A stretch of 64,000 nt of DNA from Budvicia aquatica DSM 5075 = ATCC 35567 (GTDB lineage Bacteria; Pseudomonadota; Gammaproteobacteria; Enterobacterales; Enterobacteriaceae). Shown here one piece after another: positions 9,445 to 58,703 of the stretch (position 1 is the first letter of the stretch; every line of letters begins with the position of its first letter). The stretch is from NCBI RefSeq assembly GCF_000427805.1, contig NZ_ATYS01000009.1:1-64000 (forward strand). Direction: 5' to 3'. The notes beneath the pieces were generated by a model. That model made no database searches, was not told where the DNA came from, and saw only the letters and a list, made by a program, of their open reading frames with translations. The position numbers and the translations under genes were made by a program.

Positions 9445-10965
9445 TTACATAATTGAACCAATATTCCAGGGAACAAATTCCAAACCACCGTAACCAAAAA
9501 GTTCACTCTTGGTTTTTTTACCCGATGCCATATCCAGAATCATGGTGTATAAACGCTCGCCGGCTTCAGCAATGGTTTCTGTGCCGTCAACGACGTTGCC
9601 ACAGTTAATATCCATATCTTCTTCCTGCCGCTTCCAGAGCGTATTGTTGGTGGCCAGCTTTAGGGACGGCGTTGGTTTGCTGCCAAATGCCGATCCCCTG
9701 CCGGTCGTAAAACATAGCAGATTGGCTCCGCCGGCAATTTGGCCGGTAACGGCAATCGGGTCGTATCCGGGGGTATCCATAAAGACCAGCCCTTTGGCGG
9801 TGACCGGTTCAGCATATTCATAAACATCGACTAAGTTAGAGGTTCCGCCTTTGGCGATGCCACCGAGGGATTTTTCCAGTACTGTCGTCAGGCCACCGAC
9901 TTTGTTGCCCGCCGATGGATTGTTATTCATCTCGCTGTTATTGCGGGCACAGTAATCCTCCCACCATTTAATCCGGCTGATGAGTTTTTTACCGACTTCG
10001 GGCGTCACGGCACGGCGGGTTAACAGATGTTCTGCCCCGTAGATCTCAGATGTTTCGGACAGAATTGCGGTACCGCCTTGCTGAACAATTTTATCGGCGG
10101 CATAGCCAAGTACCGGATTGGCTGAAATACCCGAATAGCTATCGGAACCGCCGCACTCTAAGGCCAGAATAATTTCAGAAACGGGTACCTCTTCACGTTT
10201 AACCTGGTTGGCTTCGGCCAGCATTCCATCAATAACTTCAATGCCCTTATTAATGGTTTTTTGCGTGCCGCCGGTTTCCTGAATTGTCATGGTATGCAGC
10301 ATTTTGCCTTCGGTCAGGTTTTCGACCTGAATCAGATCTTTGATCTGATTAGATTCACATCCCAGACCGATGATAACCACGCCAGCAAAGTTGACGTGTC
10401 GGGCATATCCGCTCAAGGTGCGGCGCATAACAACCATGGCTTCACTGTCAAAACCAATCGCACAGCCGAAGCTTTGCGGCAGAGCGACAACCCCGTCAAC
10501 GTTAGGGTAGTTTTCTAGTCCGTGCTTTTTATAATGATCTTCAATTGCCCGGGCGACTGTGGCACTGCAGTTTACCGAGGTCAGAATACCGATAAAGTTT
10601 CGGGTTGCTACGCGACCGTCGGCCCGTTTGATGCCCATAAAGGTATCGATTTTTTCCGCTTTAGGTAGTTCAATGGTATCTTCACCGAAGGCGTAGTCGC
10701 GGCTGAAGTCACCCATGCTTAGGTTGTGGGTGTGGATATGGTCGCCTGCTTTAATGGGCTCTGAGGCAAAACCGATAATTTGCCCGTAGCGTTTTACCGC
10801 TTGGCCAACGGGAATATCCCGTAGGGATATTTTATGGCCCTCAGGAATATCGGATTGAACTTTAATGTTTTCATTGGCTAATACCGTGCCGGCAGATACC
10901 GGAAAGCGGGCGACAACGACATCATCGTTAGGATTAAGCTTCATTACGGGATAGACATTACTCAT
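9445..10965 (-). CDS. UxaA/GarD-family sugar-acid dehydratase
   Basis: The 506-residue protein has an N-terminal SAF domain (about residues 10-85, with PEGHKISLRDIPVGQAVKRYG). A large UxaA/GarD catalytic region follows, with NFIGILTSVNC, YPNVDGVVALPQSFGC, ALECGGSDSYSGISANP, NPSAGNKVGGLTTVLEKSLG and CFTTGRGSAFG. Enzymes of this family (altronate dehydratase UxaA, galactarate dehydratase GarD) are metal-dependent and remove water from C2-C3 of sugar acids to give 2-keto-3-deoxy acids. The full fused form of about 500 residues fits either activity. AGGAG lies 6 nt before the ATG. It is second in the leftward unit, 45 bp after the aldolase, which supports coupled dehydration and cleavage. Substrate not determined. 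Confidence 0.88.
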   Translation of the reverse strand: MSNVYPVMKLNPNDDVVVARFPVSAGTVLANENIKVQSDIPEGHKISLRDIPVGQAVKRYGQIIGFASEPIKAGDHIHTHNLSMGDFSRDYAFGEDTIELPKAEKIDTFMGIKRADGRVATRNFIGILTSVNCSATVARAIEDHYKKHGLENYPNVDGVVALPQSFGCAIGFDSEAMVVMRRTLSGYARHVNFAGVVIIGLGCESNQIKDLIQVENLTEGKMLHTMTIQETGGTQKTINKGIEVIDGMLAEANQVKREEVPVSEIILALECGGSDSYSGISANPVLGYAADKIVQQGGTAILSETSEIYGAEHLLTRRAVTPEVGKKLISRIKWWEDYCARNNSEMNNNPSAGNKVGGLTTVLEKSLGGIAKGGTSNLVDVYEYAEPVTAKGLVFMDTPGYDPIAVTGQIAGGANLLCFTTGRGSAFGSKPTPSLKLATNNTLWKRQEEDMDINCGNVVDGTETIAEAGERLYTMILDMASGKKTKSELFGYGGLEFVPWNIGSIM

Positions 10966-44763: not shown

Positions 44764-45353
44764 CAAAAGTGAGCGCCATATCCCCACAGTAACACCGTGA
44801 GTCCTAACAGGGCTTCCAGTACCAGAATACCAATGGCCAGCGTTGAGCTGGAAAAGATAAATCCTTCGCTTCGGTCAATGTTAAGAAAGGCCGGAATGCC
44901 GGAATAAAGCAGATAAGCGCAATAGCACAGTCCGATAATACCCGCTAACAGACACATCCACACCAGCGGATATAAGGCAACGATACCGCTTAAGAACATC
45001 GGAGTAGCCGTATAACCGGCAAAAATAATACATTGGGACAAATCAGGGCGTTGGTGATAGCGACGGGCCATAACATGAATGACTTTACCCACGATAGCCA
45101 CCGCGGCTAACAGCATACCGTAGAAAACAATGCCGATATAAATGGCTATAATTGGCATGACTTTAACAACCTGACCATCGCCGAACATCCAGCCGAAATA
45201 GGTGGTACCAATAAACGAACAGATCACCGGTATTGCCGCCATCAATAATATATAGCGGGTATACAGGTGAGATACTGTCTCTTTTTCCTGACTGATTTGT
45301 TGGAACTCCCGGCCGGGATGGGTCAAAAGTCCCCAGACATGATTGAACATCAT
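44760..45353 (-). CDS. yohC: YohC, Yip1-family inner-membrane protein
   Basis: A 197-residue protein with about five membrane segments. NHVWGLLTHPGREFQQI at the N terminus, LLMAAIPVICSFIGTTYFGW and the C-terminal FSSSTLAIGILVLEALLGLTVLLWGYG follow E. coli YohC closely (195 residues). Yip1-domain proteins are polytopic membrane proteins; YohC has no established role. GGAGGT precedes two consecutive ATG codons at 45353 and 45350, and either may be used. In E. coli yohC lies next to pbpG; here yedI stands between them. Confidence 0.9.
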   Translation of the reverse strand: MMFNHVWGLLTHPGREFQQISQEKETVSHLYTRYILLMAAIPVICSFIGTTYFGWMFGDGQVVKVMPIIAIYIGIVFYGMLLAAVAIVGKVIHVMARRYHQRPDLSQCIIFAGYTATPMFLSGIVALYPLVWMCLLAGIIGLCYCAYLLYSGIPAFLNIDRSEGFIFSSSTLAIGILVLEALLGLTVLLWGYGAHFW

Positions 45354-45542
45354 AAGACACCTCCGGACTTGCCGGTGGCCGCACCCGGCAACAGATAACA
45401 CCTTCTATTTAATTAAGGCTAATCTCGCGGTCTTAGGGTAAGTATAGTTTAATTGGCTGTAATAGATGTGTTGGTTTTGGCGGATTTGTCAGCAGATATG
45501 TCGCCTTGCTGAATATGGGTCAGCAAGGCGAACGGGAAAGAA

Positions 45543-46484
45543 TCAGGCTGATGGGGTCGACGGTTTGTTATTTTTTAATTTACCCACGATAGTGACACCG
45601 ATTAGTACTATCGCGCCGGCAATAGCGCCAAAAACCATGCTTAAGATGGTCGGGCTAACCGCGCTAAGAATAAAGCCTATGGTCGGAACGGTCGCGGCCA
45701 TTTGAGCCAAATGTTCAATAGCGCCGCTTACCGGCGGAATACCGTGAGTCAGAATACCGCCACCCACCATAAACATGGCTGCGGTACCAACGATCGAAAG
45801 GGTTTTCATCAGGTAAGGTGTAACGCTGATAAGCCCATTGCCCATAGCTTTAACCACGCTGGTTTTTTTACGGCTCAGGTAAAAACCGAGATCGTCTAGC
45901 TTGACGATGCCGGCCACCAGTCCGTAAACACCGATGGTCATTGCGATAGCAATACCGGACATAACAATGACCTGTTGTAAAAATTCAGCTTCGGCAATAA
46001 CCCCTAAGGTAATTGCAATAATTTCGGCGGACAGGATAAAGTCGGTTCTTATTGCACCTTTGATTTTTGTTTTTTCAAGCGCGGCCAGATCTTCTTCAGA
46101 AACGTCTATTTCTGCTGAATTCTGTTGGTCATCAGCGGAGTTTTTCGCATGCAGATATTTATGTGCCAGCTTCTCAACGCCTTCAAAGCATAAAAACGCC
46201 CCACCCAGCATCAGTAACGGAGTCACCGCCCAGGGAGCAAATGCGCTAATAGCCAAAGCCAGAGGAACCAAAATGAGCTTATTGATAAATGAGCCTTTGG
46301 CTACCGCCCAAACTACCGGAATTTCGCGTTCGGCCCTGACGCCGCTAACCTGTTGGGCATTCAGTGCCAGATCGTCACCTAAGACGCCGGACGTTTTTTT
46401 TGCGGCTAATTTCGTCATTAAAGCAACGTCATCAAGAACTGCTGCGATATCGTCGAGCAACGCAAGTAAGCTACCACCAGCCAA
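45543..46484 (-). CDS. yedI: YedI, DUF808-family inner-membrane protein
   Basis: The 313-residue protein matches E. coli YedI over its length ([63 protein letters not shown]). It has about six membrane segments and a charged linker around residues 115-140. The function of the DUF808 family is not known. The start codon is TTG, supported by AAGGA 9 nt upstream and by alignment with the MAGSSLL start of the E. coli protein. Confidence 0.9.
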
Positions 46485-46619
46485 TGTGTAAATTCCTTAT
46501 AGGGTCAATTAACAATTTGCCTTTATACAGGCAACATTGCGTCAAGCTTACCTGAAGGTTTCAACGCTTCCTACTGAAATATGAAGCACTCAGGCAAGCT
46601 AACAGGTTGGTTTAATCAT

Positions 46620-46658
46620 TAAAAAACCGCCGTTCAACGGTAGGTTGAAGCGACGGTT
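46620..46658 (-). terminator. Intrinsic terminator of pbpG
   Basis: On the minus strand AACCGTCGCTTCAAC pairs with GTTGAACGGCGGTT around a short loop and is followed by TTTTTT. It lies 40 bp after the pbpG stop. Confidence 0.85.
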
Positions 46659-46697
46659 CTGTCTGTCTATCGAACCTTAGCGATGGCTAAGCTGGAA

Positions 46698-47621
46698 TCA
46701 GGCTTGTCCCTGACGAGCTTTTTGCTTTTTATAGCTTTTAGCCGCTTCAGGAACCGGTGGTGTTTTGCCGGTTTCCATCCATTTGCGTAAACGGTTGGCA
46801 TCAGCAAAGTGGGTGTATTTACCATAGGCATCTAATACCACCAAGGCGACGTCACGATTAGCAATCGTGGTGCGCATTGCCAAACAGTGTCCGGCTTCAT
46901 TGGTAAAGCCGGTTTTAGTTAGCTGAATATTCCAGGCTTCATTGCTGATCAAATGATTGGTATTACGAAAGCCTAAACTGTAGTTAGGCTTCTGGAAAGC
47001 AACGGTCTTGTCCGGTGTGGTACTCAGTTTGCTAAGCAGGGGATACTGTTTGGTGGCAATCAGTAAACGGGTCAGGTCTCTGGCGGTTGAAACATTTTTT
47101 TCTGACAGTCCGGTCGGCTCAACGTAGCGGGTGTTTTTCATACCCAGGGATTTAGCTTTGGCATTCATCGCCTTGATAAATGCGTTATAGCCGCCGGGAT
47201 AGTGGTGGGCCAGACTCGCCGCCGCCCGGTTTTCTGACGACATCAGTGCCAGTAATAGCATCTCTTGACGGGTGATTTCGCTGCCAATTTTTACTCTCGA
47301 ATAGACACCTTTCATCTCTTTAGTGTCATTAATATTAATTGAGATGACTTCGGTTAAAGGCTGTTTCTTGTCCAGAACGACCATCGCGGTCATCAGCTTG
47401 GTAATGGAGGCAATTGGAACCACTTTGTCCGGGTTGCTGGAATAAATAACGCTGCGATTCTTCATATCAATCACCAGCGCACTGCCAGAAGCCAGTTCCG
47501 GTTGCGATGATGCGCTTTGAGTTGTAGTTTGGCTAGTTTTAGCCATGGCCTCAGGTACCGCCATTGTGCCGGCGGATAAAATTAACAGGCTTAATAATGA
47601 ACAACGAATTTTTGCGCGCAT
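46698..47621 (-). CDS. pbpG: PbpG (PBP7), D-alanyl-D-alanine endopeptidase
   Basis: A 307-residue periplasmic low-molecular-weight penicillin-binding protein that cuts peptidoglycan cross-links. The signal peptide is at 1-27 (cut after AMA). The three active-site motifs are SITK in [13 protein letters not shown] in [11 protein letters not shown] and KTG in [14 protein letters not shown] basic tail ([10 protein letters not shown]) ends the protein. Sequence agrees well with E. coli PbpG. It is followed by its own terminator. Confidence 0.95.
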
Positions 47622-47843
47622 AGCTCACTGACTTAATTAGATTATGGGAAATGAACGGGACGTTCAGCTAACAGAATTATAATTTATGATGTGGTTTCCC
47701 GTACAACTGAATTAGCCTATATATGCCTGATAAAGGGGAGGTTATTTGTAATAAATTGTATTTTTATGCTGTTGGAGAGAATTAATTGATTTTTACGTAT
47801 ATTAATCCCCTTGAAAAATCATTATCGGTTATGTTTTACAATG

Positions 47844-47862
47844 AATGAAAATCATCATTATC
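47844..47862. promoter_or_regulatory. Weak Fur-box-like site upstream of Dph6-like gene
   Basis: AATGAAAATCATCATTATC agrees with the 19-bp Fur consensus at 14 of 19 positions, including the arm ATCATTATC with one mismatch. It lies 56 bp upstream of the start at 47918. Confidence 0.3.
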
Positions 47863-47917
47863 ACTGAGCGTGATATATATTAATCCGATAATAATCTCAG
47901 ATAAGCGTTAGGTAGAC

Positions 47918-48610
47918 ATGATTATTCAGCCACAAAAACGCCCGATTATGGTTGCAACCTCCGGCGGAAAAGATGCCACGCTGGCACTGCATCGGCTGCG
48001 CTATGACCCCCGATTCAATGATTATCAGCCAGTCGGGCTGATGACGATGTTTGATGCTAACACCGGTCGTTCTACCGCGCATAATATTCGCCGGGAAGTG
48101 ATACAGGCCCAGGCTGACGCATTAGGTCTGCCATTACATATTATTGAACTGGAAGATAAACGCGGGCATGCCTATGCCGACTACGATGAAAAAGTAGGGC
48201 GGTTCTGCCTTGATCTCGTCCAACAGGGAATCTCTCACATAATGTACGGAGATATTCATCTGGAAGATGTAAAAGCCTATCGGGAGAATCTTAACCAGCA
48301 AAGTGGCATACAGGGCGTTTATCCGCTGTGGGGTTCTACACCGGAACAAATTACCGAGGAGTTTCTGGCTTTAGGCTATAAAACGTCGATTGTTGCAGTT
48401 GATAGTACTCGGCTGACTTCTGACTATCTTGGTATGACCATAGATAACCAACTGCTGGATAACTTGCCTGCCGGAGTCGATCGCTGTGCAGAATATGGTG
48501 AGTATCATACTTTCTGCACCGATGGCCCGATGTTTAGCCAAGCGGTAAAAACCGAAAAGGGCGAGGTATGGAGTGACGGAAGAAATGAGTTTATTACTCT
48601 GACTTTGTAG
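47918..48610 (+). CDS. Dph6-like ATP-binding protein (ATP_bind_4 family)
   Basis: A 230-residue alpha-hydrolase of the PP-loop ATPase group. SGGKDATLALHRL (residues 15-27) is the P-loop, and the C-terminal EYGEYHTFCTDGPMF (167-181) is the signature shared with eukaryotic and archaeal diphthine-ammonia ligase. Those enzymes amidate a modified histidine of EF-2; bacteria do not make diphthamide, so a different amide- or amine-forming ATP-dependent reaction is likely. TTAGGT lies upstream of the ATG. It is alone, with a weak Fur-like site in front. Confidence 0.8.
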   Translation: MIIQPQKRPIMVATSGGKDATLALHRLRYDPRFNDYQPVGLMTMFDANTGRSTAHNIRREVIQAQADALGLPLHIIELEDKRGHAYADYDEKVGRFCLDLVQQGISHIMYGDIHLEDVKAYRENLNQQSGIQGVYPLWGSTPEQITEEFLALGYKTSIVAVDSTRLTSDYLGMTIDNQLLDNLPAGVDRCAEYGEYHTFCTDGPMFSQAVKTEKGEVWSDGRNEFITLTL

Positions 48611-48811
48611 TCAATACGGCGAGCCTAATTGAGGTGAGCAGTCATGGTTGGTATATCTATTTGCCAAATCAAGGGGCTAGTTTTGCTCATCGGGCGGAAG
48701 CCGTTTCACTTTTAAAATTATAGAGTAAATATATATCTGTTTTTCCTGGGTGTTTATTTAACTGAAATAGAGGGGCAGAGCGCTTCTCCTCGGTGAATTT
48801 TAGAGCTATTT

Positions 48812-49159
48812 TTAAACACCCCACTTGTTCCTTTTCTTCTCTCTTCTTTCTTCTCTTATCCTTGTTTTTAAACGAGTATTTCCATTTTTGTCTACCTTGC
48901 TTTCCTGTTCGGATTTACAATTCATACCAATAAAAAAAATTATAACCATGACAAAAAGATAAAAAAGCGCGAATGATGTGAAAAGAAGCAAGCTAAACGC
49001 CATTAACGCCATAGAAATAACGGTAAGCAATACAAAAAATAGATAAAATCTATCTGGTTTACTGACAATTAAACTAATAATGAATGAAATAGCCACACTT
49101 ATTGACATTATAATAAGAAAAATCAACATATACGCTTCGTCAGACATAGGCATCATCAT
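48812..49159 (-). CDS. Small membrane protein of unknown function
   Basis: About 115 residues with three or four hydrophobic helices (LIFLIIMSISVAISFIISLIV, FYLFFVLLTVISMALMAFSLLLF, FALFYLFVMVIIFFIG) and a strongly basic tail (TRIREERREKKRNKWG). Not recognised. Several ATG codons lie close together (49171 to 49147); 49159 is chosen because AGGA lies about 11 nt upstream. It is AT-rich and could be a recent acquisition. It reads in the same direction as the lipoprotein gene upstream, 84 bp away, so the two may be co-transcribed. Confidence 0.5.
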   Translation of the reverse strand: MMMPMSDEAYMLIFLIIMSISVAISFIISLIVSKPDRFYLFFVLLTVISMALMAFSLLLFTSFALFYLFVMVIIFFIGMNCKSEQESKVDKNGNTRLKTRIREERREKKRNKWGV

Positions 49160-49243
49160 AATAATTATCATCCTGAGTGTTAATTAAGCCGTTACTAACA
49201 CGGCTATTTTGAAACTTGAAATTTATTTTCCTCTTGTCTGATT

Positions 49244-50536
49244 TCAATTTTTTGTTGCTGGCAGATCCCAAGTGATAATTACTGGAGATGAGGTTAATGA
49301 CATGGAATTAGAGTTTGCTTTGTCTTTTGGAAATTTAACGGTGCCGGCTGCCCATCCATGCTGTTCATCAAATGTCATCCCCCATAGATTGACGCTTGTG
49401 ATTTTTCCTGCGGAAGCGGCAGCAATATCCATCCAAAGTGACCAGTGAAGGCCCCCATCTTGGGTGCGGTAAATATGACCAGTATGGTTAACCATCCAAC
49501 CATCTAGTTCATTCAGCAACTGAATTCGGGTGATCATGCTATCACTTTTACTCGATACATTGCCCTGTTGCCAGTTGGTGCCTCCATCGGTTGTGCACCA
49601 TACGCGTCCTTTTCCACCTGCGATACAGCCATGATTGATATCTGAGAAGCTGACTGACATAAAGTGTGTCTGTTGTGTGTCTAAAGGAACTGTTTCCCAG
49701 TTATCTCCGCCATCCTTAGTGAACATTATCAAGCCACCACTACCGACCACCCAACCTTGTTTATCTGAAACAAAGGTGACGCCCTGAAGTGCAGTTCTAG
49801 AGGAAAGGCGAGTTGTGGCGGGTTGCCAGGATTGCCCTCCATCCACAGAGCGCAGAATATTTGCTTCGCCTACTACGACTGCGACATTGTCGTTAGCAAA
49901 AGCGATACCATATGATTCACCTTCAAAAGAATATGGCGCTAAGCGGGATTGCCTTTCATTTAATTGCTCATTATCTGGAATCGATGGTTCAACCCAGAAT
50001 GCCATGTTAAAGGGTTCCCATGTTTTTCCACTGTTTTGAGTGCGGAAAATATCACCCTTTGAGCCAGTGGTGAATAAACGTTCGGGTTTTGAACCGGCGA
50101 CAGTGATATCTCGGAACGAATCAGCAAACCGGGAGTACTTCTGTACTTGCCATGGATTTGAAACATCACGGCCGGATTGAACGATAGTGAGTGTTGGTCC
50201 ACCAACGGCATATATTTTACCTTCAGAGGAAACAAGGCTACTAAAGTTGGCGCTAACACCAGGAAGAGAAATAGCTTGAGCTTGGTAGTTCTCGTTATTC
50301 AAGAAATATATAACTGGGGATACTTGATATTCGCTATCTTCTTGTTCGGGGCGTTCATGAACGTTATGCAAATTGCGGCAGGAAATCGTATTATCTGGAC
50401 AATACGGCCAAGCACCGGGTTCGTTTGAAATGTATTTTTCTTTATGCTGCTCGGTAACTGTTGGAGAGGAATCATCACAACCCGCTAATGCAAAGATGAA
50501 AATGCAGACGGTAACTTTGGTCATTCCCTTTATCAT
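49244..50536 (-). CDS. Lipoprotein with YCF48/BNR-type beta-propeller
   Basis: The 430-residue protein has a lipoprotein signal (lipobox LAGC, Cys near residue 20). A repeated propeller follows whose blades carry Ser/Thr-x-Asp-Gly-Gly-x-x-Trp units (RSVDGGQSWQPA, FTKDGGDNWETV, CTTDGGTNWQQG, RTQDGGLHWSLW) and GWVVGSGG-type turns. These are typical of the YCF48/HCF136 family, known for photosystem II assembly in cyanobacteria; in other bacteria the role is unknown, possibly protein binding at the cell surface. AAGGTG lies 5 nt before the first ATG. Unknown neighbours on both sides give no clue. Confidence 0.75.
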   Translation of the reverse strand: MIKGMTKVTVCIFIFALAGCDDSSPTVTEQHKEKYISNEPGAWPYCPDNTISCRNLHNVHERPEQEDSEYQVSPVIYFLNNENYQAQAISLPGVSANFSSLVSSEGKIYAVGGPTLTIVQSGRDVSNPWQVQKYSRFADSFRDITVAGSKPERLFTTGSKGDIFRTQNSGKTWEPFNMAFWVEPSIPDNEQLNERQSRLAPYSFEGESYGIAFANDNVAVVVGEANILRSVDGGQSWQPATTRLSSRTALQGVTFVSDKQGWVVGSGGLIMFTKDGGDNWETVPLDTQQTHFMSVSFSDINHGCIAGGKGRVWCTTDGGTNWQQGNVSSKSDSMITRIQLLNELDGWMVNHTGHIYRTQDGGLHWSLWMDIAAASAGKITSVNLWGMTFDEQHGWAAGTVKFPKDKANSNSMSLTSSPVIITWDLPATKN

Positions 50537-50803
50537 TAATACACCTTAAATCCATTTGTTGTGAAAATTATTTCAGCATCAGGAACCGCTATTATTCTGG
50601 TTTTTTTTTAGAAATAGTCTTATCGTCAGTTACGAAGACCGGGGATTATATTGCATCAATCAGGTGAGGATGTATATATTATACCTTGAGGATTTTAGCC
50701 ATTTTTTATAGTGAAAATCACTTTATTTCAATTGGTTATTTTGTTTTTGGATTTGTGCTACGGCTGATTTTCCTGAGCTTCAATAAATAAGGATATTACT
50801 TAT

Positions 50804-51928
50804 ATGAGCGATGAACGCCACTCTCCCTATTTAGACCGCGGGGAGCATTTGCTAAATAAGATGAATGCTAAAGTCCCTTGGCAAGAGCTGGTTGACTTGC
50901 TGGAGCCTTATTATCCTGCGGATAAAAAAGGATTCAGAAACTTTAGGGTCGAAAATATGCTGAGAGTTTATTGCCTCAGTAAATGGCTTAAACTCTGTTA
51001 TGACGTGAGCGAGCAACTGGAGAGTCGTACACTTTTCCGCGATTTTGCAGGCTTAACCGGTTCGCCGGTGCCGAGCGATAATATCATTAATCACTTCAAC
51101 AACATCTTGTATAAGCATCAGGATATTCTCAGGGTGGTTGATCAAAAGACCAGCGTTTGGGATGACTTTAAGCTACCTGATTATCTAACGGCTTATCCGG
51201 AACCTGAGCAAATATTTGCTCAACCGACAGAAAAATATGCCCGTCATTTATTACCACTGGCATCAATAGATCTAAAGGCAGTGAATCCAAATTGGTCAGG
51301 CAACATCCACATTGTTAATCCTATAGATATCGATTTGGTTGAGAATACCTCGACTTTTCATAACTATTACCTACGTCATCGTTGGATAGCTTTCCATCTT
51401 ACCGATGACAGTCGTTATGAATTAATGGGCGATTGGCGCTATTTCTTTTTAGAGAATGAGCCTTCGGCTGAGCTAACTAAAGATTTGGAATTATGGCCAA
51501 CCCATCGGCAGGATCTAGAAGACCAATATACGCAGATGCATGCTGACTATCAGGCGTGTAAACGGCGATACCAGAAGGAAGGTGATATTGTTCTGGATCG
51601 GCGTAATTACTTTTTTGAGGAATACCCTGAAGATTATCCATTAAACGATGGCATATTAGAGCAGTTCGCGGGGGAAGTGGCTTCTTCATGCAGTAACTGG
51701 TTTTCTTTTGAACCATTTCCTTATCAGTCTGATATGCGAAATGTAGGGACAGAAGCTAAGCCTTGTATGCAGGAGACCAATATCAGGCCACTGGCTGAAG
51801 ATGGCTCACCTTTCCATTTTATTGCTCAAACCTATGCGCATCCTTTTATGGATATCGCCGAACGTTCTGTCATTTTATTTTTTGAGCCTAAAAATCGTAT
51901 TGCATTACTCACTTTTGAATGTTCTTAA
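50804..51928 (+). CDS. Fusion of transposase N-terminal domain and an uncharacterised C-terminal domain
   Basis: A 374-residue protein in two parts. Residues about 12-105 (MNAKVPWQELVDLLEPYYP, FRVENMLRVYCLSKWLKLCYDVSEQL, FRDFAGLTGSPVPSDNIINHF) match the DUF772 N-terminal region of IS5-type transposases. After about residue 110 the DDE catalytic domain is missing. Instead there is a ~260-residue region with a Tyr/Trp-rich core and the end DGSPFHFIAQTYAH...VILFFEPKNRIALLTF, reminiscent of DUF1963/YwqG-like proteins. The frame is unbroken, so the hybrid is probably expressed. Whether the first part still binds DNA is unknown. No terminal inverted repeats of an insertion sequence were recognised around it. 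Confidence 0.65.
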   Translation: MSDERHSPYLDRGEHLLNKMNAKVPWQELVDLLEPYYPADKKGFRNFRVENMLRVYCLSKWLKLCYDVSEQLESRTLFRDFAGLTGSPVPSDNIINHFNNILYKHQDILRVVDQKTSVWDDFKLPDYLTAYPEPEQIFAQPTEKYARHLLPLASIDLKAVNPNWSGNIHIVNPIDIDLVENTSTFHNYYLRHRWIAFHLTDDSRYELMGDWRYFFLENEPSAELTKDLELWPTHRQDLEDQYTQMHADYQACKRRYQKEGDIVLDRRNYFFEEYPEDYPLNDGILEQFAGEVASSCSNWFSFEPFPYQSDMRNVGTEAKPCMQETNIRPLAEDGSPFHFIAQTYAHPFMDIAERSVILFFEPKNRIALLTFECS

Positions 51929-51995
51929 TTAATTAATTTGCCAGCGCCGGAGACATGGTTTCATCTCTGGCACTGGCAACAAAAAACCGGTCTAT

Positions 51996-52517
51996 TTATT
52001 CTTGCTGCCAGTTGGTTACCGGAATTCCTTGTAATACTTTGGCATCAAAGGCCGACTGCGCTATGGTTAAGTACTTCTCAGCCCTGCGCTTATAGGGCTC
52101 AGGGCTATATACTTGCCCGTCCTTAATTGACAAACCTTCTGACGAAAACAGGGGAATAATCAGTCCTTTTTTATCCACTTTACTCACTAACAAATAACGT
52201 AGACCTGTTGCATATTGATCCTGATAGGCTGACTCCATTTCTATTTCGCCATATTCACAGAAATTTCCTAATGGGCCACCGATAAAGACCCGATACTTTC
52301 CGGCATCGACCTGCTGCCCAAAAGAGTGCACGACTTGAAAAATCCCTTCATTATTATTCTGTTCTATTTTTTGCTGTTGTACATAATATCCTTTTACAAC
52401 CGAGACAATTTCTTGAGTGCCTAGTGGTACAGACAAAGCTTGAGGAATATTTAGCGCTGACGGGCTGCACGCCCACGCAGTGCCGGAGAACAGTAACAGC
52501 AGGCAGAATAGCTTCAT
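51996..52517 (-). CDS. Periplasmic protein of unknown function
   Basis: A 173-residue protein with a clear signal peptide (MKLFCLLLLFSGTAWA, cut before Cys17). Two cysteines remain in the mature part (Cys17 and one in NFCEYGEIE), so a disulfide is possible. The sequence was not recognised. It converges with the fusion gene on its left and may be related to it only by position. Confidence 0.6.
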   Translation of the reverse strand: MKLFCLLLLFSGTAWACSPSALNIPQALSVPLGTQEIVSVVKGYYVQQQKIEQNNNEGIFQVVHSFGQQVDAGKYRVFIGGPLGNFCEYGEIEMESAYQDQYATGLRYLLVSKVDKKGLIIPLFSSEGLSIKDGQVYSPEPYKRRAEKYLTIAQSAFDAKVLQGIPVTNWQQE

Positions 52518-52572
52518 AGAATATCCTTATATATACCGGTCGTGTTTTTGAATAAATAGCCTGTGATAATGG

Positions 52573-52716
52573 TTATTTTTGAATAATAGTTCTGACTTGA
52601 TTAAATAACTTAGCAGCATCATATTCCTTGCTCAAATATCCAATGGCCCGTTTAGTTCTGGCAATATTATATAAAACAGTATCATACGAGCTTTCGATTT
52701 TAACCTATTTTTTTAA
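52573..52716 (-). pseudogene. Decayed 3' fragment of a dus (tRNA-dihydrouridine synthase) gene
   Basis: Read on the minus strand this stretch gives LKK[22 protein letters not shown], then RAIGYLSKEYDAAKLFNQVR and a stop. The same part of the intact DusC 1 kb away reads [22 protein letters not shown], then [21 protein letters not shown]. The match covers about 45 codons, with an internal TAG where DusC has Tyr and one codon lost. It is a pseudogene remnant of DusC or a close paralogue in the same orientation, with a DUF805 gene between the two copies. Confidence 0.85.
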
Positions 52717-52886
52717 TGGGGAAGCATCTGACCCGCCAATTTTTTATTTTATTTTTATGGTGTTTTTTATACTGAGATTGCAGTATCATTATTTTGCCTT
52801 ATTGGTTATCTTAATATGTGGTTGCTCGATTCAAAATGTATATTGAGAGCGGCTTTAAATGGAATTTTAATAGAAGTGGTATTCAT

Positions 52887-53258
52887 ATGTCATATGCGAT
52901 AAATGCTTGGTTAAATGGGTATAAAAAGATTTTTTGTTACAGCGGACGTGAACGGCGTAGAGATTTTGGCTTCTTTCTATTAATACAACTTATTGTATTT
53001 TTTGTTATTGCATTCATCGCCAGCCGGTTATTTGGTGGAAGTGGAGTCGTTGCTGAGATTGTTGCTTATGGATTTGTATTGGTTTCTATCCTGACAATGT
53101 TGCCTTATAACGTTCGGCGTTTGCATGATGCGGGTCAAAGTGGATGGTGGTGTTTGGGTTGGCTTGTTTTTGCTGCGGCCTTTATTGGTGCGGCTTTAGT
53201 GATGAAGCCTACAGTAGGTGATAATGCCTATGGCCCTGATCCACGGGCAGGTCTGTAA
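52887..53258 (+). CDS. DUF805-family inner-membrane protein
   Basis: A 123-residue protein with three to four membrane segments. The family core is visible: FCYSGRERRRDFGFFLL (opening FxGRxxRxxFW-like motif), LPYNVRRLHDAGQSGWWCL and the acidic end PTVGDNAYGPDPRAGL. E. coli YhaH and YhaI are relatives; the function is unknown. The start at MSYAINAW is preferred from family length; the frame is open further upstream. It lies between a dus fragment and intact dusC, as if brought in by an insertion there. Confidence 0.85.
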   Translation: MSYAINAWLNGYKKIFCYSGRERRRDFGFFLLIQLIVFFVIAFIASRLFGGSGVVAEIVAYGFVLVSILTMLPYNVRRLHDAGQSGWWCLGWLVFAAAFIGAALVMKPTVGDNAYGPDPRAGL

Positions 53259-53371
53259 TCATTACCACTATTTTTATAGAAAAGTAGTCAATCGGCTGCT
53301 TTTCTATATTGATTGGCAATATTAAATCGCCAGCTGTGAAGGTCATGGCGTTCGGTAAATCCTTGTTATCA

Positions 53372-53493
53372 TACCTGTCATATATCAAGCGGCATTTTTG
53401 TTGGCGCTGCTTACTTGCCGGGATCGCTTATTTGAGTAGGCGCATCGTATACAGCCTATCGGCTATTCAGCGCTGACCTTGAAATTATTTTCA
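53372..53493 (+). repeat. Degenerate full-length ERIC-like element
   Basis: Starts with ATCATACCTGTCATATATCAAG, has TTGTTGGCGCTGCTTACTTGCC and TTATTTGAGTAGGCGCATCG in the middle, and ends CCTTGAAATTATTT. The order and the ~122-bp length agree with ERIC/IRU, though with many changes. It ends inside the last codon of dusC. Confidence 0.55.
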
Positions 53494-54429
53494 CCTCACC
53501 AGGCTAGTGATAAATTGCGATAGTTGCTCTTTATCAGTCATCGCTCTGATGGATGAGAACAATGTTGATGCTTCATCATACTCTTTACGCAAATACCCTA
53601 ACCATTGCTTGGTTCTGGCAATATTATATAGCCCGGTATCGTAAGGATTCTCAGTCTGAACGTATTTCTTTAATAGCATGAGCACCCGATCCCAAGGCAT
53701 CTTATCCTGTTGATGTTTAACCACCGAGCCTAGATTAGGTAGATTTAGCGCGCCGCGACCAACCATCAGCGCATCGCAACCGGTGATTTCTTGGCAGCGC
53801 AGGCCATCTTGGTAGTTCCAGATTTCACCGTTAGCAATCACCGGAATTGATAATCGCTGGCGAATTTCACCGATGGCCTGCCAGTTAATTTTATCTGCTT
53901 TATAGCCATCTTCTTTCGTTCTGCCATGTACCGTGAGCTCATTAGCTCCGGCTTGTTGTACCGCATCGGCAATTTCAAAACGACGTTCGCTAGAGTCCCA
54001 GCCTAATCTGACCTTAACCGATAATATTTTATCTGCGGGAATCGCCTGTCTCATCGCTTTGGCTACCTGATAGATGGTTTCAGGTTCCCGTAACAGACTG
54101 GCTCCGCCGTCGCCGCCGACAACGCGTTTAGCCGGGCAGCCGCAGTTTAAATCAATCCCGTGAGATCCCATCTCAACCGCTCTGGCGGCGTTTTCTGCCA
54201 GCCAGTCGGGTGAATTACCCAATAGCTGAACCCGTACCGGCGTACCTGATTTAGTTAGCCCGCCGTTATGTAATTCAGGGCTTAAGCGATAATAGGTTTT
54301 TTGCGGCAGCAGGGTACCGGTAATGCGCACAAATTCGGTGATGCAAAGATCATAGTCATTGATCTCTGTGAGAAGTTCACGAACAAAGGCATCCAATACG
54401 CCTTCCATCGGAGCGAGCATTACACGCAT
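53491..54429 (-). CDS. dusC: DusC, tRNA-dihydrouridine(16) synthase
   Basis: A 312-residue FMN enzyme that reduces uridine 16 in t[23 protein letters not shown], the catalytic Cys98 in [47 protein letters not shown] and [11 protein letters not shown] follow E. coli DusC (315 residues). The start at [10 protein letters not shown] is used from alignment; the frame is open 16 codons further. An ERIC-like repeat touches its 3' end, and a decayed copy of its last ~45 codons lies 0.8 kb downstream. Confidence 0.95.
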
Positions 54430-54673
54430 CGGGTCACCGGGTTGATAGAGTTGATAATAAGCGGCGCATTTTCGCATGGATAGGTTTGGTTCGCCATACC
54501 GGCGGCTAAGTCAGCTTGTTAAGTGATACCCATCGCAAAAACGCACGCCAGTTGCTTAATTGGTCATAAACTTATTTGAAATAATAATTCATTGATCTAT
54601 ATTTTTATTGAAATTTCATTTCAAGATAATTTCCAGCTAACCCCTTGGTGACATTTTGCATAAGGTACTTTTA

Positions 54674-55366
54674 ATGAAAAGATTACTCATCTGCTTTACC
54701 ACTCTGCTTTTAGGTATCACGGTGGCTCATGCTCAACAGTACAATATTCATCATACCGATAAGGCGCCATTGCTAACCGGCAGTGCCGATCCGGCTATCT
54801 GGAGTAAAGCCGAGGTGCTGACTGATTTTGTTTTTCCGTGGAATCCAGAAGCGGTTCCTGCAACTGAGTTTCGTGCTTTGTGGGACAAAGATGCACTCTA
54901 TTTTCGCTTTAACGTGAAGGATGATGATATTCAGCTCGGGGACGACCCTGATAAAGATACCGCGGTTTTAGCCTCTGACCGGGTTGAGCTGTTTTTTTCA
55001 ACCGGCAAAGAGTTGAAGCCTTACTACACCATGGAAATGGATTCAGCAGGGCGGGTGTTTGATGCCGAAGCTAATTTTTATCGTCAGGTGGATGCGACCT
55101 GGAACTGGAACAGTTTAAAAACCCATGCAGAGAAAACCAAAGAGGGTTATAGCGTGGCGGGTAAAGTTGACCTTAGCGAGCTGGAAAAACTCAATCTACT
55201 GCTGGGAAGTGATAAACGCGAGCTGATGTGTGCAATTTTACGCGGCGAGTTTAGTCAAGGTGAAACCGGCCAAGTGCGTAAATGGATTAGTTGGGTTAAC
55301 CCACAAACCGTGAAGCCTGACTTCCATATTCCGGCGGCGTTTGGGGTGTGTAAATTGGTAGACTAA
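54674..55366 (+). CDS. Periplasmic CBM9-like carbohydrate-binding-module protein
   Basis: A 230-residue protein with a signal peptide (MKRLLICFTTLLLGITVAHA). A single domain of the CBM9-like fold follows: PLLTGSADPAIWSKAEVLTDF, ALWDKDALYFRFNVKDDDIQ, SDRVELFFSTG, YYTMEMDSAGRVFDAEANFYR and the C-terminal FGVCKLVD. Such stand-alone domains bind sugars or act in outer-membrane or export systems of uncertain role. The ATG at 54674 is preferred, since it begins the signal peptide and has AAGG upstream. It is monocistronic, with a hairpin after it. Confidence 0.75.
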   Translation: MKRLLICFTTLLLGITVAHAQQYNIHHTDKAPLLTGSADPAIWSKAEVLTDFVFPWNPEAVPATEFRALWDKDALYFRFNVKDDDIQLGDDPDKDTAVLASDRVELFFSTGKELKPYYTMEMDSAGRVFDAEANFYRQVDATWNWNSLKTHAEKTKEGYSVAGKVDLSELEKLNLLLGSDKRELMCAILRGEFSQGETGQVRKWISWVNPQTVKPDFHIPAAFGVCKLVD

Positions 55367-55377
55367 TCGACAATACC

Positions 55378-55407
55378 ATAAAGGGGATTGATTAAAATTC
55401 CCTTTAT
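55378..55407 (+). terminator. Hairpin after CBM9-like gene
   Basis: ATAAAGGG and CCCTTTAT form a perfect 8-bp stem with a 14-nt loop, 12 bp after the stop codon. Confidence 0.55.
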
Positions 55408-55664
55408 GCTTACGTTTTACGCTTTATCCCCGCGGTAATTCCCCTAAGATATAGGTTATAAACATAGCCTGCTCATTAATTTATTTGTAATATCAGCCAT
55501 CTGGATAACAATAGCCCTTATGGGTAAAAGCGGGCTATATTTATTATCTGTGCTGACATTACCGCATGCTGATAATTAACGGAAATCAAGCCATCTGGTG
55601 AGCGGAAGCTATCTTCCCTACATCATGTACGGACCTTTCCCGTCAATCAAGGACAGTTAATCAA

Positions 55665-56231
55665 ATGAGAAAATATTCAATGGTAATGATGACTTGCCTG
55701 GCGTTATGGGGCACTTCATCAGCAATAGCCGCGACGGATAATTCTGCGTTATTTACCTTTGCTGGTGAATATCAGGCCATCGATCCGAGAAGTGGAGAGG
55801 TGACACCGTCAACCTTAAAGGTTATCCCTTATAAAAAGGGGATGGAGGATGAGAGTAACCTGACCGAAGAGCAGCTATCGCTCAGGGCCTGGGTGGCAGA
55901 AAATACCGAGACCAAAGAAAAAGTATATCTCGACCGGCTTGATAATAAAGACAGTGAAATGTCGGAAGCGTTGAAAGCCCGTGGCTGGTCATGTGTAGCA
56001 TCAAGCCATATGATGCTATGCGGCGGGCCTTCAGGGGTTCAGCCGTTTAATGGTGAAGACTTTACCAGTAAAACCGGCTGGTTAGCTATCCTGCTGCACA
56101 GTGGCCCACTAGAGTTGGTTAAGTGTGGTGCTAAGGGCTGTGATAATAAACAGGCCGATCCCGATCGGCAGGCTCAAGATGCAGCACCTCAACCTAATCA
56201 GCCAAACAGTCAAAGTGGTAGCATACTGTAA
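55665..56231 (+). CDS. Exported protein of unknown function
   Basis: A 188-residue protein with a signal peptide (cut after AIAA at about residue 23) and a mature domain containing VTPSTLKVIPYKKG, EEQLSLRAWVAENTETKEKVYLDRL and four cysteines (two in WSCVASSHMMLCGG, two in VKCGAKGCDN), probably two disulfides. The last ~30 residues are a low-complexity Gln/Pro/Asn tail. It was not recognised. No operon partner is visible. A palindrome-rich region starts about 160 bp downstream. Confidence 0.6.
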   Translation: MRKYSMVMMTCLALWGTSSAIAATDNSALFTFAGEYQAIDPRSGEVTPSTLKVIPYKKGMEDESNLTEEQLSLRAWVAENTETKEKVYLDRLDNKDSEMSEALKARGWSCVASSHMMLCGGPSGVQPFNGEDFTSKTGWLAILLHSGPLELVKCGAKGCDNKQADPDRQAQDAAPQPNQPNSQSGSIL

Positions 56232-56696
56232 GCTATCTTGCCGAATATTTATCACGCTAATATTTAAACTAGTAGTCTCTCTTTTCCCCGGAATCAAATC
56301 GGAAATATAAAGTATTCCGACAAATCTCAGCCGATCGTCGTTCACGGGCTGAGGAGGATGACGTTTGGCGACGATGATAAATTTAAAACCCTCATTATTG
56401 AGGGCTCAGACTGCTGACAAACTCCAATAATTAAACTATTGCTCTTAAAGGTGGTCAACCGAAGGGGGCGCCGCAACTTGAGTTGCCGACAAATTTGTCG
56501 GCAATAAATTTAAACAGCGCTAGCGCTGGCCCGTAGGGTTGGACACATGAATGTGTCCAATAATGGCCCTTAGGAAAGGTAGGCCGGTAGCCCACCAGAC
56601 GTTAAAAGTATCGCCCCTCGGCCGCTAGGAAAAATGTATATCCCGATGTCAATTATGCGCACGAAATCTACGCTAAAATCAAATTAAACCACGTTG
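56232..56696. other. 465-bp non-coding region before moeB
   Basis: No convincing gene. Its centre is the palindrome cluster at 56389-56570. The flanks (56232-56388 and 56571-56696) hold no recognised signal apart from further GC-rich short repeats near 56580-56630. Confidence 0.5.
56389..56570. repeat. Cluster of palindromes / structured element
   Basis: Five inverted repeats stand within 180 bp: CCCTCA-TTAT-TGAGGG (56389-56404), GCAACT-TG-AGTTGC (56473-56486), a perfect 22-bp palindrome with half TTGCCGACAAA (56483-56504), CAGCGCTAGCGCTG (56515-56528) and TTGGACACAT-GA-ATGTGTCCAA (56539-56560). An outer TAGGG/CCCT pair encloses the last one. No reading frame runs through it. It fits a non-coding repeat element or a structured RNA better than ordinary spacer DNA. 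Confidence 0.6.
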
Positions 56697-57455
56697 TCAG
56701 CTACAGCTTGAGCACACCGGACAGGCCGGATCGCGCATCAGTTTCATCTCTCTGAACTGCATTGTCATGGCATCAATCATCAGTAGTCGGCCGGTTAACG
56801 GGGTACCAAAGTGAGTTAACACTTTAATCGTTTCCATTGCCTGCATTGAGCCGATCATGCCAACCAACGGTGACATTACGCCGGCCTCGACGCAGGTTAA
56901 AGCATTGGCACCAAACAGGCGGCTCAGGCATTGATAGCAAGGTTCATTCTGCTGGTAAGTAAATACGCTAATCTGACCTTCCATGCGAATAGCCGCACCG
57001 GAAACCAAGGGGATGCGTAATTTGCAGCATTGCTGATTAAGCCGATTGCGGATATCTACGTTATCGGTGCAGTCTACAACAATATCCACCTGCTGAATTA
57101 ACGCAGCCAACTGTTGGTCATCCAGCGCGGCATCGACCGTATGCAAAGCCACGTTGGGATTGATTTCGCTCAGCGAGCGGCGGGCAGATTCAACCTTTGA
57201 CATACCAATGCGGTCGTCGCGGTGCAGTATTTGGCGCTGTAGGTTGGATAACGACACGGTGTCGAAATCCAGCAGCGTCAGCGAGCCAATACCGGCAGCG
57301 GCCAGATACTGGGCTGCCGGGCAACCTAAACCACCTAAGCCGACGATCAGCGCCGAAGAGGCTTTCAGTTTTTCCTGCCCGTCGAAGTCAAATCCGCGCA
57401 GGATAATCTGACGGTTATAACGCAGGGTTTCGCTATCGCTCAGTTCAGGCAGCAT
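56697..57455 (-). CDS. moeB: MoeB, molybdopterin-synthase adenylyltransferase
   Basis: The 252-residue E1-like enzyme activates the C terminus of MoaD as an acyl-adenylate for molybdopterin synthesis. It has RYNRQIILRGFDFDGQEKL, the nucleotide loop GLGGLGCPAAQYLAAAGIG, LLDFDTVSLSNLQRQILH, DCTDNVDIRNRLN and two zinc CXXC pairs (CYQC and CPVC). Length equals the E. coli enzyme, without a rhodanese domain. The start has GGAGAG upstream, located inside the end of moeA, and the genes are 3 bp apart, so they are coupled. Confidence 0.96.
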   Translation of the reverse strand: MLPELSDSETLRYNRQIILRGFDFDGQEKLKASSALIVGLGGLGCPAAQYLAAAGIGSLTLLDFDTVSLSNLQRQILHRDDRIGMSKVESARRSLSEINPNVALHTVDAALDDQQLAALIQQVDIVVDCTDNVDIRNRLNQQCCKLRIPLVSGAAIRMEGQISVFTYQQNEPCYQCLSRLFGANALTCVEAGVMSPLVGMIGSMQAMETIKVLTHFGTPLTGRLLMIDAMTMQFREMKLMRDPACPVCSSCS

Positions 57456-57458
57456 CGC

Positions 57459-58703
57459 TTAGCTCTCCAGCAGTGAATTAAAGGGTTCTACCGTAACCCA
57501 TTCACCGGCGGCAACAGAGCCGCGTTCCTGCTCTAACACAATAAAGCAGTTAGCCTGGCTAAATGAGCTAAACACGTGTGATCCCTGATGACCGGTAGTA
57601 CAAACTTCCATTTCACCCTGTGCATTGGTCGACAAAATACCACGCTGGAAATCTAAACGACCCGGCGTTTTCTTCAGCTTGCTGGTGGTTTTGACTCTGA
57701 ACTGACGTGGCTTTTGCCACTGAGTGTATCCGCTGAGTTTAGCAATTAACGGCTGAACCAATTGATAGAAGGTCAGGGCGGCAGAGACCGGATTCCCCGG
57801 TAGTCCGCAGAACCAAGCCTGACTTAATTTACCGAAGGCAAAAGGTTTGCCCGGCTTAATTGCCAGTTTCCAGAAGCTAATCTGGCCCAGTTCATCAAGA
57901 ATTTGCTTGGTGTAGTCAGCTTCACCAACCGAAACGCCGCCGCTGCTGATAACTAAATCAGCCTGACTGTTTGCACGGTCAAAGGCTTGTCGAATAGCGG
58001 CTTCATTATCGCGGATAATACCAAGGTCAATAACTTCACAGCCGAGTTGCTGGAGCATTAATCGAACCGCGAAACGGTTAGTATCGTAAATTTGCCCGTC
58101 CTGTAGCGGCTGACCAATGAGCTGGAGTTCATCACCGGTAGAGAACAGGGCGACTTTTAAGCGGCGATAAACGGCAACCTGACTGACACCTAGCGAGGCT
58201 AACAGCGGTAACTGCGCTGCGCCCAGCCTTGAACCTGCGGCTAATACCTCGGCCCCTTTAATAATATCTTCACCGGCTAAGCGAATATTCTGGCCGGCTT
58301 TAGGCAGATGAGTGAAGCGGATGCCGTTATCCAGCACTTCAGCCTGCTCTTGCATAATAACCGCTTCAGCTTCGGCTGGTGCCGGGGCTCCGGTCATAAT
58401 GCGTAAACAGGTTCCTGTCGGCCATTCACCGTGGAACGGTTGCCCGGCAAAGGCTTTACCGGCTACCGGTAAAATAGCCGACTCAGTCACGTCTTTAAGG
58501 CGTACGGCGTAACCGTCCATGGCTGAGTTAGCAAATGGCGGAACGTCGAGCGGAGAGGTCACTGACCGGGCGGTAATTCGTCCCGCGGCTTGAGTCAGGT
58601 CTATTTGTTCGCTTTGGGATACCGTGCTGACCTGTGACAGTATTTTTTCTAAGGCCTGGCTAAGAGTAAGAAGATCTGATGATGTAGTTGCACAACAATC
58701 CAT
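57459..58703 (-). CDS. moeA: MoeA, molybdopterin molybdenumtransferase
   Basis: The 414-residue enzyme inserts molybdate into adenylated molybdopterin. Family segments: [80 protein letters not shown] and [16 protein letters not shown]. The C-terminal domain IV ([22 protein letters not shown]) is complete. GGAG lies 8 nt before the ATG. It forms a two-gene operon with moeB, as in E. coli. A molybdenum cofactor would also serve TorZ-type reductases linked to the cytochrome at the window start. Confidence 0.96.

What the first reader, a model, noticed from the sequence alone, without database searches (positions are those of the whole stretch)
50804..51928. Transposase N-terminal domain joined in frame to an unrelated domain
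The first ~105 residues are of the IS5-type DUF772 kind; the DDE catalytic domain is replaced by ~260 residues of another protein with a DUF1963-like end. The frame is open throughout. This looks like transposase-domain capture, a route to new DNA-binding regulators or antitoxin/immunity-type proteins.
Basis: partly seen in the sequence, partly recalled or inferred. Interest (0 to 1): 0.6.

Follow-up and report, generated by a model that had tools for sequence, protein, structure and literature searches.

The report
One-off transposase-fragment and orphan-gene fusion
In this one genome the front part of a jumping-gene enzyme is joined, in frame, to an uncharacterised bacterial protein that stands alone in the other genomes where we found it; it looks like a single accidental fusion, not yet shown to do anything new.

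Summary
The ORF at 50804-51928 (+, 374 aa) is real and chimeric. Residues ~12-106 match the N-terminal (DUF772) domain of IS5-group transposases. Residues from ~111 to 374 are a complete member of an unnamed family of ~235-295 aa proteins. The DUF1963 label is not supported. No second fusion appeared in the genome samples. The C-half keeps family-conserved residues within its family's range (30 of 43). The N-half keeps only 18 of 30 transposase-conserved positions, against 27 of 31 or better for 15 real transposases. Best reading: a lineage-specific chimera of an IS fragment and an accessory gene in a variable chromosomal interval; the C-half carries whatever function there is, the N-half is a non-catalytic passenger or diverging appendage. 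A functional captured domain is not excluded, since the frame stayed open. Regulator or antitoxin function has no evidence.

The parts
50804..51121 (+). N-half, residues 1-106: IS5-group transposase N-terminal domain (DUF772), diverged, without the DDE catalytic part
51122..51175 (+). junction zone, residues 107-124: transposase similarity fades out and C-half family similarity begins
51134..51928 (+). C-half, residue 111 to stop: complete member of an unnamed family of stand-alone proteins
50790..50793 (+). AGGA, possible ribosome site 10 bases before ATG 50804
   Evidence: sequence; pairing energy fourth of 18 in-frame start-type codons
51120..51136 (+). AGGA (51120-51123) 10 bases before in-frame GTG 51134 (residue 111): possible old or internal start of the C-half gene
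   Evidence: pairing energy only tied sixth of 18
47622..53490 (.). variable interval between a pbpG-like gene and dusC in which the ORF lies
   Evidence: the two gene names are my reading of the proteins

Best explanation
The ORF is a one-off chimera. A 5' fragment of an IS5-group transposase gene (about 106 codons, without the DDE part) came to lie directly upstream of, and in frame with, an accessory gene whose own start was near residue 111, in a variable chromosomal interval. Shown: the two homologies, the junction zone, the stand-alone state of the C-half family elsewhere, the single copy, the different conservation of the two halves. Inferred: the fused protein is made from ATG 50804; the C-half carries the benefit, as the same sort of accessory protein that is found on plasmids, in an integron-like array and at scattered chromosomal sites elsewhere; the N-half is a non-catalytic appendage no longer held to the needs of transposition.
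For: Transposase similarity ends around residue 106 and no DDE remnant is in the window. 23 of 23 C-half family loci lack the N-half; an in-frame stop lies 3-53 codons upstream of the family's start in 22 of them. No other genome sampled has the fusion, and none of the 5000 best-scoring plasmid records holds a place covering 80% of it (limit reached). Single copy of the N-half in the genome. N-half keeps 18 of 30 transposase-conserved positions, 15 transposases left out in turn keep 27 of 31 or more; C-half keeps 30 of 43, nine relatives 0.50-0.97 of theirs. Third-position GC 55 of 106 codons in the N-half, 93 of 264 in the C-half, p 0.003. The other genome of the genus has different ORFs in the interval.
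Against: The N-half has stayed open although at most ~41% identical to known transposases over the domain; neutral decay to that level left no stop in 5.4% of 1000 simulated runs (indels not modelled, a known IS assumed as donor). That hints at constraint, or at an unsampled donor IS. No IS end was found to prove an insertion.
Confidence: 0.5

Rival explanations
1. Two separate things that only look fused: the gene is still translated from GTG 51134 as a ~264-aa stand-alone protein, and the upstream transposase fragment is a remnant whose frame happens to run on.
For: The stand-alone relatives begin at about that place; AGGA lies 10 bases before GTG 51134; relatives also use GTG starts.
Against: The pairing energy at GTG 51134 is unremarkable, tied sixth of 18 in-frame start-type codons, and weaker than at ATG 50804, fourth of 18 (spacing was not scored). 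The upstream frame is open throughout.
Confidence: 0.25
2. Genuine domain capture: the DUF772 domain has been recruited as a working N-terminal domain (DNA binding or oligomerisation) of a new lineage-specific protein.
For: Open frame, fair ribosome site at ATG 50804 and loss of transposase-specific residues without a stop; unlike decay, recruitment would explain the open frame.
Against: Found in one genome only; 23 of 23 relatives do without it; several positions conserved in transposases are changed, so binding to IS ends is doubtful; no regulatory target or partner known.
Confidence: 0.2
3. The join is an assembly error.
For: The assembly is in 120 contigs and no relative confirms the join.
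Against: The join lies inside a contig of at least 64 kb, the N-half occurs nowhere else in the genome, so it is no collapsed repeat, and the frame is intact across the join.
Confidence: 0.05

Closest known systems
IS5-group transposases (DUF772 plus DDE domain; ISKpn13-type, NCBIfam NF033581)
   Same: Residues ~12-106 align with their N-terminal domain at 32-41% identity.
   Different: No DDE domain, no recognised IS ends, single copy, 12 of 30 conserved positions changed.
Unnamed stand-alone family of the C-half (e.g. WP_255255452.1 of plasmid pQBR57, product 'hypothetical protein')
   Same: Full-length alignment, 21-38% identity to nine relatives, conserved positions kept as in other members.
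   Different: The relatives start near the junction and have no transposase domain.
DUF1963 (PF09234)
   Same: By eye, a similar C-terminal ending; a real DUF1963 gene lies two genes before the Priestia homologue.
   Different: No Pfam match for the ORF or its C-half, none in the genome, no profile alignment with one DUF1963 protein.
Host-transposase fusion genes of eukaryotes (e.g. F-box genes with a Tc1/mariner HTH, PMC12062965: seen as a search listing with the start of its abstract)
   Same: A transposase's non-catalytic domain joined to another protein.
   Different: Those are gene families; this is one ORF in one genome, with no function shown.

Membership tests
IS5-group transposase | DUF772-type N-terminal domain | tested here: met
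IS5-group transposase | DDE catalytic domain | tested here: not met
   Six full-length transposases match only 50822-51175 in the window; no DDE family among the matches of the ORF.
IS5-group transposase | IS ends (inverted repeats) around the gene | tested here: inconclusive
   No significant similarity to the upstream or downstream parts of 12 diverged relatives in a crude alignment test.
Unnamed C-half family | Full-length similarity with the conserved positions | tested here: met
   30 of 43 positions; profile match, although the window's own sequence is a row of the profiles.
Unnamed C-half family | Stand-alone protein with start at the junction | tested here: not met
   Here the frame runs on for 110 codons upstream; in 23 of 23 other loci there is no transposase part. 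Whether an internal start is used is untested.
DUF1963 | Match to PF09234 above its cut-off | tested here: not met
DUF1963 | Shared fold | tested here: inconclusive
   Models too poor (pLDDT 46.5 and 52.9); fold comparison uninformative.
Captured-transposase regulator | Fusion conserved in more than one lineage | tested here: not met
   samples, not every genome
Captured-transposase regulator | DNA binding and a regulatory effect | not testable with these tools
   Needs the bench.
Antitoxin or immunity protein | Toxin gene next to it, here or at relatives | tested here: inconclusive
   No toxin among annotated or Pfam-matched neighbours seen; at other loci only ORFs were listed.

The most novel reading that the evidence does not exclude
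A recently born bacterial gene: an IS5 transposase N-domain, freed from the needs of transposition, has been recruited as a new functional N-terminal domain of an orphan accessory protein, giving a lineage-specific chimera with a new DNA-binding or oligomerising property.
Probability: 0.2. Interest if true: 0.5.

Novelty: new member of a known kind. Interest (0 to 1): 0.2.

Why it matters
As it stands this is one more chimera of an IS fragment and a gene, useful as a caution against reading domain capture from one open frame. It points to an unnamed, sparsely spread protein family without a convincing match in the libraries tried (Pfam, NCBIfam, PHROGs, PADLOC), present on plasmids, in an integron-like array and on chromosomes. 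If the fusion proved functional it would be a bacterial counterpart of eukaryotic transposase-domain capture.

Tried and rejected
Without result: look-ups of the C-half in Pfam, NCBIfam, PHROGs, PADLOC and PDB sequences gave only weak, probably chance matches. No relative of the C-half in phage records at E <= 0.1 or, confirmed, in viral contigs (9 pattern matches, 0 confirmed). The first genome-contig scan, with the whole protein, gave 23 pattern matches and 0 confirmed. Structure prediction of the C-half and of a Burkholderia homologue was too poor (pLDDT 46.5 and 52.9); comparing the second model with solved structures gave no clear match (best VIA Z 3.0, best Foldseek E 1.5). No IS end recognised. 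No Rfam match at gathering scores in 45000-56000. No near DNA match of 46000-58000 in E. coli genomes.

Considered and rejected: the near-repeat at 50787-50797 and 51117-51127 (10 of 11 bases) as a target-site duplication. Its core AGGATATT occurs 7 times in the window (2.74 expected; 2 of 100 shuffles reach 7) and at 50790 and 52520 lies just before start codons, so it is more likely a ribosome-site word. Also rejected: a live IS (catalytic part missing, single copy).

Literature: listings with starts of abstracts only. No paper held 'DUF772', 'domesticated' and 'transposase' together. Passages only were read of PMC8987985 and PMC3711429 (programmed frameshifting in a DUF772 cluster annotated as IS1182 transposases). 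I claim nothing about print beyond these searches.

Rows dropped before counts: alignments over 95% identical (the window itself), duplicates and sequences with stops (32 distinct left), then clustering below 80% identity (15 left). One search, one of two Comamonas rows. One search leaves out L012/L164, L013/L159, L160 and the window's own copies as the same genes as L004, L041, L014 and the window; L005 and L030 are two strains of one species, both kept.

Full report
Observation. The window holds an uninterrupted frame of 374 codons at 50804-51928 on the + strand. Its first part is transposase-derived: Pfam DUF772 at residues 48-104 (23.9 bits, cut-off 23.1), NCBIfam IS5_4 at 18-106 (41.4 bits, below the whole-protein cut-off of 140), a PHROG transposase family at 14-106 (58.9 bits). 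The rest has only weak, probably chance matches in Pfam, NCBIfam, PHROGs, PADLOC and PDB sequences. The 'DUF1963-like end' was not found: not among the matches listed at E up to 10, none in the genome at E <= 0.001, no alignment of a shallow C-half profile with one real DUF1963 protein.

The transposase half. In the family, 20 of 295 genomes hold a match to residues 1-113, the window's own counted; in the class, 39 of 369. Many are frames of about 320-350 codons, as of whole transposases; others are shorter or broken. Over the whole domain the nearest are about 41% identical; some short fragments reach 45-46%. Of 109 tblastn alignments to fetched loci, 103 end at residue 102-106 and 6 at 112-113. 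With full-length transposases as queries, two of six alignments run on to residues ~115 and ~124, so the edge is blurred by some residues. No second copy lies in the genome. No DDE remnant lies in the window: the six transposases match only 50822-51175, the other listed matches having E 0.75 or more. Against positions conserved in 15 representative transposases the window keeps 18 of 30; each transposase, left out in turn, keeps 27 of 31 or more. The domain is no longer held to what transposition requires, or its donor was an outlying, unsampled IS.

The C-half. The family is sparse: 3 of 394 genomes of the order, 4 of 369 of the class, 7 of 398 of the phylum, the window's own counted each time, the draws overlapping. 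Nine relatives align over their length at 21-38% identity to the window. The window keeps 30 of 43 conserved positions, nine relatives 0.50-0.97 of theirs: an ordinary member.

Is the fusion found elsewhere? At 23 loci of the C-half family no N-half relative is present: three matches at E 0.60 to 7.6 lie away from the gene. The family's start corresponds to the junction zone. An in-frame stop lies 3-53 codons upstream of the start in 22 of 23; in L163 the frame is open for 99 codons, without transposase similarity. Among plasmid records the 5000 best-scoring (the limit was reached) hold no place covering 80% of the protein. The one other genome of the genus has no match; its interval between the pbpG-like gene and dusC holds other ORFs (compared by eye; by DNA only the dusC end matches). 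The names pbpG and dusC are my reading of the proteins.

How the chimera may be expressed. AGGA lies ten bases before ATG 50804; the same 8-mer AGGATATT lies equally far before an in-frame GTG at residue 111, about where stand-alone relatives begin. Pairing with the anti-Shine-Dalgarno string is fourth of 18 in-frame start-type codons for ATG 50804 and tied sixth for the GTG (spacing not scored). A fused and an internally started product are both possible, the fused one slightly favoured. Third-position GC differs between the halves (55 of 106 and 93 of 264 codons, p 0.003), in keeping with separate origins.

Chance or selection. Once a fragment lies upstream of a gene, the frames agree one time in three (inference). 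In simulated neutral decay to 41% identity, 5.4% of 1000 runs had no stop (indels not modelled; a known IS taken as donor). This hints at constraint but proves none. With one genome of the species in hand, dN/dS cannot be measured.

Structure. Models of the C-half (14 sequences, pLDDT 46.5, pTM 0.48) and of a Burkholderia homologue (pLDDT 52.9, pTM 0.53) are weak; the second gave nothing above VIA Z 3.0 or below Foldseek E 1.5 among solved structures. The fold stays unknown; the whole chimera and the N-half alone were not modelled.

Judgement. The best account is a lineage-specific chimera of an IS5-group transposase fragment and a stand-alone accessory gene. The C-half is the part expected to function; the N-half is a passenger or a diverging appendage. 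Genuine capture is possible (0.2) but no second case supports it. It is a new example of a known kind of event; interest is low.

Noticed in passing
It looks like a chromosomal integron cassette; the attC reading is from general knowledge and no integrase was looked for.
   Followed up: partly
53371-53447: Intergenic repeat with 7 further copies in the genome, 71-89% identical, some of them partial; no unusual single-strand folding.
   Followed up: partly
47622-53490: Interval between a pbpG-like gene and dusC differs in its ORFs from the other genome of the genus: a variable site without a recognised integrase.
   Followed up: partly
49244-50536 (-): 430-aa protein with YCF48/BNR repeats (PSII_BNR, 91 bits), transcribed away from the chimera.
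   Followed up: no
48812-49171 (-): 119-aa protein with a weak match to TssN of type VI secretion, E 6.9e-4, 19.6 bits, below the cut-off of 30.3.
   Followed up: no
L008:8442-9131 and 9983-10726 (Priestia filamentosa plasmid pBEH6): A true DUF1963 gene lies two genes before the C-half homologue; both proteins end in a similar-looking stretch, but no profile similarity was found.
   Followed up: partly
L035, L038, L040, L042 and L013 (Comamonas): The homologue seems to sit at the same place, beside a dihydrolipoamide acetyltransferase-like gene (gene name is my reading), suggesting vertical inheritance there.
   Followed up: no
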